DNA of 64,000 nucleotides. It comes from Kutzneria sp. 744. GTDB lineage: Bacteria; Actinomycetota; Actinomycetes; Mycobacteriales; Pseudonocardiaceae. Below the pieces are notes generated by a model. The model was not told the DNA's origin, did no database searches, and worked only from the letters and a program-made list of their open reading frames with translations. The stretch lies in the NCBI RefSeq assembly GCF_000568255.1, contig NZ_KK037166.1, positions 8,655,257 through 8,719,256 of the forward strand, in the 5' to 3' direction. A program made the position numbers and the translations under genes. Below, in pieces: positions 43,615-55,200 of the stretch; within the stretch, counting starts at the first letter, position 1; each line of letters opens with the position of its first letter.

Positions 43615-44511
43615 ATGTCGCTTGCCCCCAGCGCCAAGGGGACCGTGAAGTTCGGTGATTACAAGACGTGGTACCGGGTGACGGGCGACCCGAGCTCCGG
43701 CAAGCCGGTGCTGGTGGTGGTCCACGGCGGTCCCGGCAGCACCCACGACTACCTGCTGCGCCTGAGCGAACTGGCCGCCCGCGGCTGGCCGGTCGTGCAC
43801 TACGACCAGCTCGGCAACGGCGGCTCCACGCACCTGCCGGACAAGGGCGCGGACTTCTGGACCCCGGAGCTGTTCGAGGCCGAGCTGACGAACCTGGTGC
43901 GGCAGCTGGGCATCGACGGCAACTACGTGCCCTTCGGCCAGTCCTGGGGCGGCCTGCTGGTCGCCATGCACGCCGCCAAGCGCCCGAAGGGCCTCAGGGG
44001 ACTGGTGATCGCCAACTCACCGGCCTCCTACCCCTTGTGGCTGCAGGAGATGAAGGTCCTGCGCGACCAGCTGCCGCCCGGCGTCGACGAGATCCTGCGC
44101 CGCCACGAGGCCGAGGGCACGACCGACAGCCCCGACTACCACAACACCATGCAGGCCTTCTACGACAAGCACGTCTGCCGGATCAAGCCGGCGCCGCGGG
44201 ACATGCAGGCCTCGCAGTACGAGATCTACAACGACTCCACCGTCTACTCCACCATGAACGGCCCCAGCGAGTTCCACGTGATCGGCACGCTCAGGGACTG
44301 GGGCGTCATCGACGTCCTGCCCGACATCGAGGTGCCGACGCTGATCATCTCCGGCCGCCACGACGAGGCCACGCCGGCCACCGTCCAGCCCTTCCAGGAC
44401 CTGATTCCCCACAACCGCTGGGAGATCTTCGAGGAGTCCAGCCACGTGCCGCACCTCGAGGAGCCCGAGCTGTTCGACGACGTCCTGCACACCTACCTGT
44501 CCAGCCTGTAG
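43615..44511 (+). CDS. Proline iminopeptidase-like amide hydrolase (VinJ type)
   Basis: A 298-residue alpha/beta hydrolase of peptidase family S33. The oxyanion motif HGGPG is at 37-41, the nucleophile Ser110 in GQSWGG, the acid Asp250 in GRHDEATP and the base His277 in SSHVPH. No signal peptide is seen, so it is cytoplasmic. In vicenistatin biosynthesis VinJ removes the protecting alanyl group from the amine of the finished polyketide, so that the thioesterase can form the lactam. The neighbouring VinK-, VinL-, VinM-, VinN- and VinO-type genes support the same job here. ATG 43615 has a ribosome site 7 nt upstream, and only 13 nt separate its stop from the next gene. A generic aminopeptidase is the alternative, made unlikely by the context. 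Confidence 0.85.
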   Translation: MSLAPSAKGTVKFGDYKTWYRVTGDPSSGKPVLVVVHGGPGSTHDYLLRLSELAARGWPVVHYDQLGNGGSTHLPDKGADFWTPELFEAELTNLVRQLGIDGNYVPFGQSWGGLLVAMHAAKRPKGLRGLVIANSPASYPLWLQEMKVLRDQLPPGVDEILRRHEAEGTTDSPDYHNTMQAFYDKHVCRIKPAPRDMQASQYEIYNDSTVYSTMNGPSEFHVIGTLRDWGVIDVLPDIEVPTLIISGRHDEATPATVQPFQDLIPHNRWEIFEESSHVPHLEEPELFDDVLHTYLSSL

Positions 44512-44524
44512 CGGAGACAAGCCA

Positions 44525-45469
44525 ATGCGCACCGAGTTCACCGCGTCCGAAGCGGTCGTCTTCCCCGGCATGGGGCCGTCCCGCTTCGCCGACGTCGGCA
44601 AGTTCATGGTCATCAACCCCTACGCGCGGCGCCTGGTCGCCCAGGCCGACGAGCGCCTGGGCTACTCGCTGGTGGACGCCTTCCGCGACACCGAGGGCGA
44701 CTACAGCCGGCACGCCCAGGTCAGCTTCCTGGTCAACTGCGTCGCCCTGGCCCAGTGGGCCGAGGGCGAGCTGGGCGCCAAGCCCGAGGTTGTCGTCGGC
44801 CCGAGCTTCGGCGGCAAGGCGCTGGCCGCCTACACGGGCTCACTGTCCTTTTCGGACGCCGTGTGGATGACCTACGAGTTCGCCCGCTGCCTCGACGAGT
44901 TCTTCGCCACGGAGTTCGCCGACGTGGTCACGCACTCGTTCGTCCGGACGCCGCAGGACATCCTCGCGCAGCTGTTCGCCGAGATGGACGAGCTGGGCTA
45001 CTGGCACGACGTGTCCTGCCACATCGACCACGACTTCCACATGGTGTCGCTGAGCCGGGACAACCTGGAGTGGTTCCAGCAGAAGCTGCGCCGCAACGGC
45101 GGCATGTCGCTGTACACCATGCATCCGCCGATGCACGTGAGCAGCTTCGGCCCGCTGCGCGAGAAGATCCGGACCGAGGTCTTCGACCAGCTCGCGTTCG
45201 CCGACCCCACGCTGCCCGTGGTCAACGACCAGAACGGCGAGATCGTCACCACCGGCGAGCAGGTCCGGGACATGCTGCTCGACGGCATCGTCAACACGGT
45301 GCGCTGGCCGGACGCGGTGGCCACGCTCAAGTGCCTCGGCGTGACCAAGGTGCACATCGCCGGCCAGGACAGCCTGTTCGGCCGGGTCGCCGTGACGACC
45401 AAGAACTTCGAGGTCGCGGCGGTCGACCCGAAGCTCGCGGTCAGCCCCCGCAAGCGCACCGCGGCGTGA
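44525..45469 (+). CDS. Trans-acting acyltransferase for the starter unit (VinK type)
   Basis: 314 residues of FabD/AT fold. FPGMGPS (13-19) replaces the usual GQGSQ. The nucleophile is Ser94 in GPSFGG, which replaces GHSxGE, and the catalytic His is in MHVSSF (about 204), at the position of HAFH in malonyl ATs. This departure from CoA-dependent ATs fits an enzyme that moves acyl groups between carrier proteins. VinK shifts the alanyl-3-aminoisobutyryl group from the stand-alone ACP VinL to the PKS loading ACP. Both putative partners are here: the free ACP (45556-45804) and the loading ACP at the start of PKS5. The gene is co-transcribed with the amide hydrolase and ends before two hairpins. 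Confidence 0.85.
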   Translation: MRTEFTASEAVVFPGMGPSRFADVGKFMVINPYARRLVAQADERLGYSLVDAFRDTEGDYSRHAQVSFLVNCVALAQWAEGELGAKPEVVVGPSFGGKALAAYTGSLSFSDAVWMTYEFARCLDEFFATEFADVVTHSFVRTPQDILAQLFAEMDELGYWHDVSCHIDHDFHMVSLSRDNLEWFQQKLRRNGGMSLYTMHPPMHVSSFGPLREKIRTEVFDQLAFADPTLPVVNDQNGEIVTTGEQVRDMLLDGIVNTVRWPDAVATLKCLGVTKVHIAGQDSLFGRVAVTTKNFEVAAVDPKLAVSPRKRTAA

Positions 45470-52222: not shown

Positions 52223-52257
52223 GCGTCGTCGAGGGCAGCGGTGTGGAGAGTGGGCGA

Positions 52258-55200
52258 ATGAGCGAGTCCGGAAACTTCGTTCCTGACGCGGGTGGGGCGC
52301 TCGCGAGTCGGCTGGGCGCGGTTCCACCCGCCGAGCAGATCCGGATCCTGGTGGGTCTGGTGAGCGAGCACACACTCGCCGTGCTGCGGCGGATCCGGCC
52401 GGAGACGACCGTCCGGATCGGACCCGACGAGGCCTTCCGTGACCTGGGTCTGGACTCGCTCGGCCTGGTCGAGCTGCACACGCGGCTCGGGGCCGAGACG
52501 GGTCTGTCCCTGCCGCCCACCGTCGGTTTCGACTACCCGACACCGAATCTGCTGGCCGCCCACCTGCGGGCGGAACTGCTCGGCCTGGAGGCGGAGGCGG
52601 CGGAGACGCCTGCCTCCGCTTCCGCGGATGACGAGCCGATCGCCATCGTCGGCATCGGCATCCGTCTCCCCGGCGACGTGGACTCCCCGGATGCCCTGTG
52701 GCAGCTGGTTTCCGAGGGGCGTCACGTCAGCGACGAGTTCCCGACCGACCGCGGCTGGGACCTGGATCGCCTGTACGACCCCAATCCCGACAACCCCGGC
52801 ACGACCTACGTGCGGCACGGCGGCTTCCTGCCCGACGCCGGCGACTTCGACGCCGACTTCTTCGGCATCAGCCCGCGTGAGGCGTCCGCGATGGACCCGC
52901 AGCAGCGGCTGGTGCTGGAAACCTCCTGGCAGGCCCTCGAACGCGCCGGCATCGACCCGCACTCGTTGCGGGGCAGCCGATCCGGCGTCTTCGTCGGCGC
53001 CGAGCCGCAGGAGTACGGCGTGCGCCTGCACGAGGCGCCCGACGGCTTCGACGGATACCTGTTGACCGGCAACGCCCCCAGCGTGGTCTCCGGGCGCGTG
53101 GCCTACACCCTGGGGCTGGAAGGCCCCACTCTGACGGTTGACACCGCGTGCTCCGGCTCGCTGGTGGCGCTGCACCTGGCGGTGCAGTCGCTGCGTCTGG
53201 GCGAGTGCACGCTGGCCCTGGCCGGCGGCGTCGCGATCATGGGCAGCCCGGGTACCTTCACCGCCTTCGCCCGCCAGCGCGGCCTGGCCGCCGACGGCGT
53301 GGTCAAGGCCTTCGCGGCGGCGGCCGACGGCACCGGTTTTGCCGAGGGCGTCGGCATTCTCGTGTTGGAGCGACTGTCCGAGGCGCAGCGCAACGGGCAC
53401 ACCGTGCTGGCCGTGATCCGCGGTTCCGCGATCAACCAGGACGGCGCGTCCAACGGCATCACCGCACCGAACGGCCTGGCCCAGCAGAAGGTCATCCGCC
53501 AGGCGCTGGCCAACGCCGGCCTGACGGCCGCGGACGTCGACGCGGTCGAGGCCCACGGCACCGGCACCACCCTCGGCGACCCGATCGAGGCCAACGCGTT
53601 GCAGGCCGTGTACGGCCGCCACCGCGAGCGCCCGATGTGGTTGGGGTCGTTGAAGTCCAACATCGGGCACACGCAGGCGGCCGCCGGTGTGGCCGGCGTG
53701 ATCAAGATGGTCACGGCCATGCGGCACGGGGTGCTACCCAAGACCCTGCACATCGACGCGCCCTCGCCGCACGTCGACTGGGCGTCCGGGGCCGTCACGC
53801 TGCTGACCTCCGAAGTCCCCTGGGACAGCGAGGTTCGCCGAGCGGGCATCTCGTCCTTCGGTGTCAGCGGCACCAACGCCCACCTCATTCTGGAGCAGGC
53901 CCCCACTGGAGATGTCGAGTCCGCACAGCCGACCCCGGACTCGGTCGCGCGCCGTCGCCTGGACCCGCAGGCTGCTTCGACCGCGCCCCCCGCCGAAAGC
54001 GCCGACGGCGTACGCGCGGTCGAAGCAGACAAGGGGAAGGCGGCGGCTTGGAGCGCGACCGACGCCCTGCCGGAGGCGGGGCAGACAAGCACGGTGTCTC
54101 CTTTTGTCGTTTCCGCCCGCAGCGTCGAGGCGTTGAAGGCGCAGGCCACCAAGCTGTCCACAGTGGATGCCCCGCTGGTGGATCTGGCCAACTCCCTGGC
54201 CACGACCCGGGCCGCGCTGGAGCACCGCGCCGTGGTCATCGCCGGCGACCGCGACGAGCTGCTGCGTGGTCTGGCCAACATCGCGTCCGGCGACGCCGCG
54301 ACCGCCACGGCCGGCGGCCGGCTGGCCTTCCTGTTCACCGGCCAGGGTTCCCAGCGTCTCGCCATGGGACGAGAACTTTCTGGCAAATACCCAGTCTTCG
54401 CCGAAGCGTTGGAAGACGCCATCGCGCACCTCGACGTGCAGCTGGACCGTCCCCTGAGCGAAGTCCTGTTCGGCGACGACGAGGAGCTGCTGGGGGAAAC
54501 CGCTTACACGCAGGCCGCGCTGTTCGCGGTCGAGACGGCGCTGTTCCGGCTGCTGGAGTCCTGGGGCGTCACCCCGGACCTGGTCGCCGGCCACTCCATC
54601 GGCGAGCTGGTCGCCGCGCACGTCGCCGGCGTGCTGTCGCTGGAGGACGCCGCCACCCTGGTCGCCGCGCGCGGCCGGCTGATGCAGGAGCTGCCGCGTG
54701 TCGGCGCGATGGTGGCGGTGCGGGCCAGTGAGGGCGATGTCCGTGCCGCGCTTGAGGGTTACGAGGGTGTGAGCATCGCGGCCATCAACGGCCCGCGATC
54801 CATTGTCCTGTCCGGCGTCGAGGAGCAGGCGCTCGCCGTCGCCGGGAAGTTCGAGAAGTCCAAGCGGCTGCGCACTTCGCACGCGTTCCACTCGGCGCTG
54901 ATGGAGCCGATGCTGGAGGAGTTCCGGCTCATCGCCAGCGTGCTCGATTTCCAGCCGCCGCAGATTCCCGTCGTGTCCAACGTGACCGGCGGCGTCGCCA
55001 GCTCGGCCGACCTGTGCTCGCCCGACTACTGGGTCCGGCACGTGCGGGAGGCCGTGCGTTTCGCCGACGGCATCACGACCCTGGTCGACGAGGGCGTGAC
55101 GACGTTCATCGAGCTCGGCCCGGATCCGGTTCTTTCGGCCATGGGCAAGGAAAGCGTCGACGGCGACGTCGTCTTCGCGGCCGCGCTCCGCCGTGACCGG

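What the first reader, a model, noticed from the sequence alone, without database searches (positions are those of the whole stretch)
43615..52590. Complete 3-methylaspartate/3-aminoisobutyrate starter cassette of the vicenistatin type
All activities of the known vicenistatin loading route are present, and PKS5 starts with the matching loading ACP. They are mutase S and E, ligase, decarboxylase, aminoacyl capping enzyme, free ACP, trans acyltransferase and amide hydrolase. This predicts an amine-terminated starter and a macrolactam product.
Basis: partly seen in the sequence, partly recalled or inferred. Interest (0 to 1): 0.7.

Follow-up and report, generated by a model that had tools for sequence, protein, structure and literature searches.

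The report
Complete vicenistatin-type macrolactam starter cassette
This stretch of a Kutzneria genome carries the full, well-known gene set that makes and loads a beta-amino acid starter for a ring-shaped polyketide; the same set, in the same order, sits in dozens of other actinomycetes, so it is an intact but ordinary example.

Summary
Confirmed, and ordinary. Window 43615-52222 carries eight intact genes (VinJ-, VinK-, VinL-, VinM-, VinN-, VinO-, VinH-, VinI-like), followed by a modular PKS that starts with a loading ACP (52258). VinN-, VinO-, VinH- and VinI-like genes overlap by 4 bp each, so mutase and ligase are probably co-translated. The ligase keeps VinN's Asp230, Lys330 and Arg331 (Asp218, Lys318, Arg319) but has Tyr219 and Thr287 for Phe231 and Ser299. 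That pocket is common: 79 of 80 named relatives have both, in a set biased towards Tyr, including Amycolatopsis saalfeldensis, whose cluster makes ciromicin on a 3-amino-2-methylpropionate starter. Ten mutase E residues picked as active-site ones (from recall) are all kept. Of 80 named loci, 73 carry both mutase genes and 33 have exactly this gene order and strand. The nearest named relative is Kutzneria buriramensis (84-96% identity per gene). Six PKS genes give twelve malonyl-type modules plus a thioesterase, predicting a 28-membered polyene macrolactam, one extension more than the 26-membered 3-Amp compounds named in a 2023 survey. Five frame breaks in the PKS genes; the congener's corresponding ORFs are open. 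Substrate and product are inferred. New member of a known kind.

The parts
43615..44511 (+). VinJ-like amidohydrolase (removes the capping aminoacyl group)
   Evidence: 3wmr 478 bits with GQSWGG, GRHDEATP and SSHVPHLEEPE aligned; Pfam Abhydrolase_1; TIGR01250 above its cut-off
44525..45469 (+). VinK-like trans-acyltransferase (moves the dipeptidyl starter to the loading ACP)
   Evidence: 5czc 403 bits, SFG Ser aligned; Pfam VinK_C PF21124 118 bits
45556..45804 (-). VinL-like free acyl carrier protein, opposite strand
   Evidence: 5czd_B 99 bits, LGLDSLGTVELL; PP-binding
45994..47508 (+). VinM-like aminoacyl capping adenylation enzyme; Asp200 at the amino-group Asp position
   Evidence: 6akd 623 bits, 8k4r 622 bits; Asp200 in 56 of 56 relatives aligned
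47648..49189 (+). VinN-like beta-amino acid ligase; pocket D218, Y219, T287, K318, R319
   Evidence: 3wvn 607 bits; pocket positions (residue roles)
49186..50421 (+). VinO-like PLP decarboxylase
   Evidence: Pfam Orn_Arg_deC_N and Orn_DAP_Arg_deC; Lys45, the presumed PLP lysine (recalled), in 80 of 80 relatives
50418..50912 (+). VinH-like glutamate mutase S subunit (B12 binding)
   Evidence: B12-binding; methylaspartate mutase S NF002612 52.7 bits, below its cut-off 110; GlmS 1cb7_A 30 bits; DxHxxN in 74 of 74 relatives aligned
50909..52222 (+). VinI-like glutamate mutase E subunit
   Evidence: PF06368 295 bits; the only PF06368 match in the genome; ten recalled active-site positions of GlmE identical, 17 of 22 positions printed
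52258..61275 (+). First PKS gene: loading ACP at 52408-52617, then module 1 and part of module 2; frame lost near 61.2 kb and continued in another frame
61245..64000 (+). Continuation of the first PKS gene (rest of module 2, start of module 3); runs past the window to 68117
2203..16780 (+). PKS modules 5-7 (frame break near 5.9 kb); module 7 ketoreductase and dehydratase look inactive
16790..21498 (+). PKS module 8, KS-AT-KR-ACP (frame break near 20.8 kb)
21619..36481 (+). PKS modules 9-11 (frame break near 30.8 kb)
36860..42664 (+). PKS module 12 with terminal thioesterase
   Evidence: Pfam Thioesterase 74 bits at residues 1723-1930

Best explanation
A vicenistatin-type starter cassette of the 3-amino-2-methylpropionate (3-Amp, 3-aminoisobutyrate) kind. 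Glutamate mutase (50418-52222) turns L-glutamate into (2S,3S)-3-methylaspartate. The VinN-like ligase loads it on the free ACP. The VinO-like enzyme decarboxylates it to 3-aminoisobutyryl-ACP. The VinM-like ligase caps the amino group with a small amino acid, probably L-Ala. The VinK-like transferase moves the dipeptide to the loading ACP at 52408-52617. Twelve modules extend it with malonyl units, the VinJ-like hydrolase removes the cap, and the TE of the last PKS closes the lactam. Shown here: genes, families, residues, order, overlap, module count. Inferred: every reaction, the substrate, the working order of the PKS genes and the 28-membered ring.
For: Families and nearest solved structures. 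Pocket D218/K318/R319 as in VinN, and a nine-position pocket code identical to that of A. saalfeldensis L079, whose cluster gave the ciromicin precursor in S. albus. Ten recalled active-site positions of GlmE kept. N-O-H-I overlaps of 4 bp. One MutE in the genome. 73 of 80 named loci have both mutase genes, 47 of 80 all eight genes, 33 of 80 the identical order and strands. Loading ACP before the first KS; 18 of 80 loci show such an ACP by a strict motif scan that misses PKS genes outside the locus. TE on the last PKS.
Against: Two pocket positions differ from VinN (F231 to Tyr219, S299 to Thr287). More distant relatives (L008-L024, loci of about 4.4 kb without a mutase hit) also have Tyr and Thr, so these two do not mark 3-methylaspartate. 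MutS and MutE score below the NCBIfam equivalog cut-offs (52.7 of 110; 182.9 of 390.1 bits). Five of 22 GlmE positions printed differ (67, 95, 97, 178, 317). PKS genes have five frame breaks in this assembly.
Confidence: 0.93

Rival explanations
1. Fluvirucin-type use: the ligase mainly loads L-aspartate and the starter is beta-alanine.
For: VinN takes L-Asp with low efficiency and a vinI mutant makes the desmethyl compound (PMC11284099 passages). The pocket code alone does not separate Asp from 3-methylaspartate ligases here. One genome with this code, that of L053, has no MutE among its held contigs.
Against: An intact mutase pair overlaps the decarboxylase gene, and 73 of 80 relatives keep both genes in the locus. 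Of the six loci with this exact code that lack MutE in the locus, five have it elsewhere in the genome (L051, L078, L084, L087, L098); the sixth, L053, is a 4-kb contig.
Confidence: 0.05
2. The cluster is decaying: real frameshifts in the PKS genes leave an intact but useless starter cassette.
For: Five places where domains of one module change frame: about 5.9, 20.8, 30.8, 61.2 and 68.5 kb.
Against: The corresponding PKS genes of the congener G300 are open (4862, 1560, 5012 and 1765 aa, and 1584+3687 aa across a fetch boundary); two of them were aligned and are 88-89% identical to window pieces, the others are matched by position and length only. The broken frames keep GC3 of 0.88-0.92. A completeness of 95.19% fits uncorrected indels (inference).
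Confidence: 0.08
3. Another beta-amino acid starter, such as 3-aminobutyrate, beta-phenylalanine or a 3-amino fatty acid.
For: The capping enzyme is as close to 6akd as to 8k4r, and the free ACP nearly as close to 6m01_B (94 bits, from the hitachimycin HitB-HitD complex) as to 5czd_B (99 bits), so these two do not tell the starter type.
Against: The ligase scores 607 bits with VinN, but 159 with HitB (7dq5), 135 with IdnL1 (5jjq) and 115 with CmiS6 (5jjp) (names). A glutamate mutase and a VinO-type decarboxylase are present.
Confidence: 0.01

Closest known systems
Vicenistatin (vin) starter cassette, Streptomyces halstedii
   Same: The eight enzyme and carrier types, the loading ACP at the N terminus of the first PKS, and a TE on the last PKS (PMC11284099 passages)
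   Different: Ligase pocket Tyr219/Thr287 instead of Phe231/Ser299; 55% ligase identity; twelve PKS modules (vicenistatin: eight, recalled). Vicenistatin's cluster has aminosugar genes; in the twenty proteins scanned here Pfam named one family 2 glycosyltransferase and nothing specific to deoxysugars
Ciromicin clusters (asa of Amycolatopsis saalfeldensis, pac, cir)
   Same: Same gene order and strands and same pocket code in A. saalfeldensis L079; 3-Amp starter
   Different: 61% ligase identity; 22-membered product, xylosamine genes and two glycosyltransferases (PMC10662134 passages)
Sceliphrolactam (sce) cluster and the Saccharothrix sp. ST-888 homologue
   Same: 3-Amp starter genes sceG-M; an unreduced keto group and a hydroxyl in the chain, as predicted here from modules 7 and 8; ST-888 locus L099 has all eight genes in the same order
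   Different: 26-membered product from ten modules, one presumed iterative, two of them methylmalonyl. Here twelve modules, all with the HAFH motif. In L099 the ACP gene is on the + strand
Kutzneria buriramensis DSM 45791 cluster (L030)
   Same: The whole cassette and the neighbouring SRPBCC gene at 84-96% identity per gene, same order
   Different: No product was found for it; the only search made, for Kutzneria with macrolactam, listed six papers, none read

Membership tests
Vicenistatin-type (3-Amp) macrolactam starter cassette | Beta-amino acid ligase of the VinN family with the amino-group Asp | tested here: met
   3wvn 607 bits; D218 = VinN D230
Vicenistatin-type (3-Amp) macrolactam starter cassette | Ligase pocket identical to VinN at the positions named in PMC11253843 (D230, F231, S299, K330, R331); I do not hold this to be defining | tested here: not met
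   F231 to Y219 and S299 to T287. Both Tyr and Thr are in 79 of 80 named relatives, incl. ciromicin's L079; L108 has Val for Tyr. The set was found with DDVV[FY]CRF and SWD[YV]GL[YH]K, so it is biased towards Tyr
Vicenistatin-type (3-Amp) macrolactam starter cassette | Glutamate mutase S and E genes in the cluster | tested here: met
   GlmE R66, R100, R149, H150, E171, Y177, Y181, F216, K326, E330 identical (their roles are recalled). Both subunits fall below the NCBIfam equivalog cut-offs
Vicenistatin-type (3-Amp) macrolactam starter cassette | VinO-type PLP decarboxylase | tested here: met
   family and Lys45; no VinO sequence was at hand for a direct comparison
Vicenistatin-type (3-Amp) macrolactam starter cassette | Capping ligase, free ACP, dipeptidyl transferase, amidohydrolase (VinM, L, K, J) | tested here: met
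   (that 8k4r, 5czc/5czd and 3wmr are VinM, VinK/VinL and VinJ is recalled)
Vicenistatin-type (3-Amp) macrolactam starter cassette | Loading ACP at the N terminus of the first PKS and a TE on the last | tested here: met
Vicenistatin-type (3-Amp) macrolactam starter cassette | Ligase activates 3-methylaspartate; product has the 3-amino-2-methylpropionate unit | not testable with these tools
   needs an assay or a purified product
Fluvirucin-type (beta-alanine) cassette | No mutase genes beside the ligase | tested here: not met
   mutase pair present and overlapping the decarboxylase gene
Fluvirucin-type (beta-alanine) cassette | Ligase prefers L-Asp | not testable with these tools
   no FlvN sequence was at hand; needs an assay
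Incednine-type (3-aminobutyrate) cassette | IdnL1-type ligase | tested here: not met
   607 bits with VinN against 135 with IdnL1 5jjq
Incednine-type (3-aminobutyrate) cassette | Glutamate-2,3-aminomutase in the cluster | not tested
   no search was made for it

The most novel reading that the evidence does not exclude
The cluster makes an undescribed 28-membered polyene macrolactam on a 3-Amp starter: ten C=C-forming modules, one keto (module 7) and one hydroxyl (module 8), no methyl branch except the starter's. That is one extension more than the 26-membered 3-Amp compounds (sceliphrolactam, bombyxamycins) named in PMC10662134, and at least one more Kutzneria (G300) has the same set of PKS gene lengths.
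Probability: 0.45. Interest if true: 0.3.

Novelty: new member of a known kind. Interest (0 to 1): 0.17.

Why it matters
Little is new in kind. It adds a complete Kutzneria example of a common cassette with a probably larger product. It also shows that many mutase-linked ligases, the ciromicin one among them, have Tyr and Thr where VinN has Phe231 and Ser299, which matters for anyone predicting starters from VinN residues alone.

Tried and rejected
Read F231Y/S299T as a sign of another substrate: rejected, since the ligase of the ciromicin producer A. saalfeldensis has the same pocket.

Read the MutS motif DxHxxN (usual DxHxxG, recalled; also in 1cb7_A) as a defect: rejected, 74 of 74 relatives aligned have Asn there.

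Read the below-cut-off NCBIfam scores as non-mutase: rejected, since the ten recalled active-site positions are kept and PF06368 scores 295 bits.

Tried to test VinK-VinL interface residues: the two papers are not held, so not tested. The VinN structure paper is not held either. No FlvN sequence was at hand, so there is no direct Asp-ligase control; Lentzea aerocolonigenes L108 (pocket Val, no MutE in its held genome) is the nearest thing to one. L003, L004, L006 and L007 lie on contigs of the same length and place as L037, L077, L079 and L108, so the counts given use L030-L109 only. One search kept the best 80 of 112 relatives; the other 32 were not seen.

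Full report
What is there. The window lies at 8,655,257-8,719,256 of a single-contig 11.65-Mb genome. Gene calls give: VinJ-like 43615-44511; VinK-like 44525-45469; free ACP 45556-45804 on the minus strand; VinM-like 45994-47508; VinN-like 47648-49189; VinO-like 49186-50421; MutS 50418-50912; MutE 50909-52222; then a PKS gene from 52258. Starts were chosen with the help of ribosome-binding-site-like sequences, which the MutS start lacks. The last four cassette genes overlap one another by 4 bp. Pfam and NCBIfam assign each to the expected family, with both mutase subunits below the NCBIfam equivalog cut-offs.

Nearest solved structures. Ligase: 3wvn 607 bits, then sequences other than VinN at 269 and below. 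Capping enzyme: 6akd 623 and 8k4r 622. Transferase: 5czc 403. Hydrolase: 3wmr 478. ACP: 5czd_B 99, 8k4r_B 98, 6m01_B 94. MutE: 6h9e 135. MutS: 1cb7_A 30 bits (E 3e-6), with methionine synthase domains at 28. That 3wv4/3wv5/3wvn are VinN is stated in PMC11253843; that 3wmr, 5czc and 8k4r are VinJ, VinK and VinM is recalled, although Pfam names the VinK_C domain.

Pocket. PMC11253843 (passages) gives VinN's key residues as D230, F231, S299, K330, R331. They align with D218, Y219, T287, K318, R319 here. So the amino-group Asp and the loop Lys/Arg are kept and two other residues differ. Over nine positions chosen by me the window reads DYYSTGQKR. Of the 80 named loci L030-L109, 78 read the same, L077 differs only at position 222 (His) and L108 only at position 219 (Val); Tyr219 and Thr287 are thus both present in 79 of 80. 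A. saalfeldensis L079 is among the 78; its asa cluster, expressed in Streptomyces albus, gave the ciromicin precursor (PMC10662134, passages and section 6). The scan used the patterns DDVV[FY]CRF and SWD[YV]GL[YH]K and kept the best 80 of 112 relatives, so ligases with Phe at 219 can be missed and the frequency of Tyr is biased upward. The pocket alone does not separate 3-methylaspartate from Asp.

Mutase link. 73 of 80 loci hold both mutase genes. The other seven are L051 (S gene only), L053, L078, L084, L087, L098 and L108. All seven genomes were searched for MutE: five have it elsewhere (L051, L078, L084, L087, L098) and two do not (L053, L108). L053 is a 4-kb contig, and contigs under 3 kb are not held, so its absence is weak. 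L108, the clearer case without MutE, is also the one with the Val pocket.

Mutase residues. R66, R100, R149, H150, E171, Y177, Y181, F216, K326 and E330 of C. cochlearium GlmE are identical in the window protein; that these matter for substrate and cofactor is recalled. Of 22 positions printed, 17 are identical and five differ (67, 95, 97, 178, 317). In the S subunit the cobalamin motif reads DAHTWN, and D-[SA]-HTWN in 74 of 74 relatives aligned, so the Asn is a trait of the family.

Order. 47 of 80 loci have all eight genes; 33 of 80 have exactly the window's order and strands, and 10 more differ only in the strand of the ACP gene (identity thresholds of 45-50%). Thirty-three of 80 lack at least one of the eight in the stretch held, some because the contig or the 10-kb flank ends. 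PMC10662134 counted 435 genomes with macrolactam clusters and, in Amycolatopsis, 28 clusters of the 3-Amp kind. The cassette is therefore common.

Organism. The best named relative is Kutzneria buriramensis (ligase 89%; cassette and SRPBCC genes 84-96%). In the genus, 4 of 7 genomes including this one have MutE.

PKS. Domain mapping with domains taken from the window and motif and alignment checks give: loading ACP and modules 1-3 (52258-68117), module 4 (to 73154), modules 5-7 (2203-16780), module 8 without DH (16790-21498), modules 9-11 (21619-36481), module 12 with TE (36860-42664). All twelve ATs carry HAFH, the malonyl motif (recalled). The KS Cys motif is present in 11 of 11 KS domains aligned; module 4's KS is cut by a frame break and was not aligned. 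The ketoreductase Tyr is present in 11 of 12 (Phe in module 7) and the second dehydratase Asp in 10 of 11 (Glu in module 7). So module 7 should leave a keto group and module 8 a hydroxyl. With a four-atom starter contribution and 2 x 12 atoms the ring is 28-membered, if the PKS genes act in the order loading gene, module 4, then 5 to 12. PMC10662134 (introduction passage) names 20-, 22- and 26-membered 3-Amp compounds; Table 1 of PMC9230918 (section 4, part 1 of 2) lists 28 for polycyclic heronamides and 22-32 for kenalactams, so 28 is not a new ring size as such. A search for '28-membered' with macrolactam and polyene listed two papers, not read.

Frame breaks. Domains of one module change frame at about 5.9, 20.8, 30.8, 61.2 and 68.5 kb. 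In the congener G300 the corresponding ORFs are open; the 5012-aa and 4862-aa proteins were aligned with window pieces at 89% and 88% identity, the rest are matched by place and length. Sequencing indels are the likelier cause, but this was not tested. The cassette genes themselves are intact.

Flanks. Twenty proteins were scanned, one of them in the window (281-2101, FAD-binding), not all of the flanks. Left: LuxR-type regulators, TetR, ABC transporter, FtsX permease, GNAT. Right: thioesterase, SDRs, P450, glyoxalase-like, radical SAM, flavin oxidoreductases, ETF, a family 2 glycosyltransferase (L113:3940-5364), M14 peptidase, AMP-binding. Where the cluster ends was not determined.

Verdict. 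Observation confirmed, interpretation supported, ordinary in kind. Papers: PMC11284099, PMC11253843 and PMC5785472 by passages; PMC10662134 by abstract, outline, passages and section 6; PMC9230918 by passages and section 4 part 1. Other papers in the search lists were seen as listings only.

Noticed in passing
about 5.9, 20.8, 30.8, 61.2 kb in the window and 68.5 kb beyond it (L112): Five reading-frame breaks inside PKS modules; the corresponding ORFs of the congener G300 are open, so probably assembly indels.
   Followed up: partly
window 43000-43485, minus strand: SRPBCC/polyketide cyclase-like gene between the TE-bearing PKS and VinJ; among the 80 named loci its only tblastn hit (E 1e-8) is in K. 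buriramensis (L030, 86%).
   Followed up: partly
VinH-like S subunit, window 50418-50912 and relatives: Cobalamin motif DxHxxN instead of DxHxxG in 74 of 74 S subunits aligned.
   Followed up: partly
L031 (Streptomyces himastatinicus), also L040: VinN-O-H-I set with a more distant capping ligase (42-45%) and no VinK or VinJ hit in the locus; in L031 a gene that looks KAS III-like by eye and no KS motif in the genes called. May use the 3-Amp unit outside a type I macrolactam PKS.
   Followed up: no
L108 = L007 (Lentzea aerocolonigenes): VinN/VinO pair with Val in place of Tyr219 and no MutE in the held genome: a candidate ligase for another beta-amino acid.
   Followed up: no
PKS module 7, window 14525-16540: Ketoreductase (Tyr to Phe) and dehydratase (Asp to Glu) with lost catalytic residues, next to a DH-less module 8: a keto-hydroxy pattern like that of sceliphrolactam.
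   Followed up: partly
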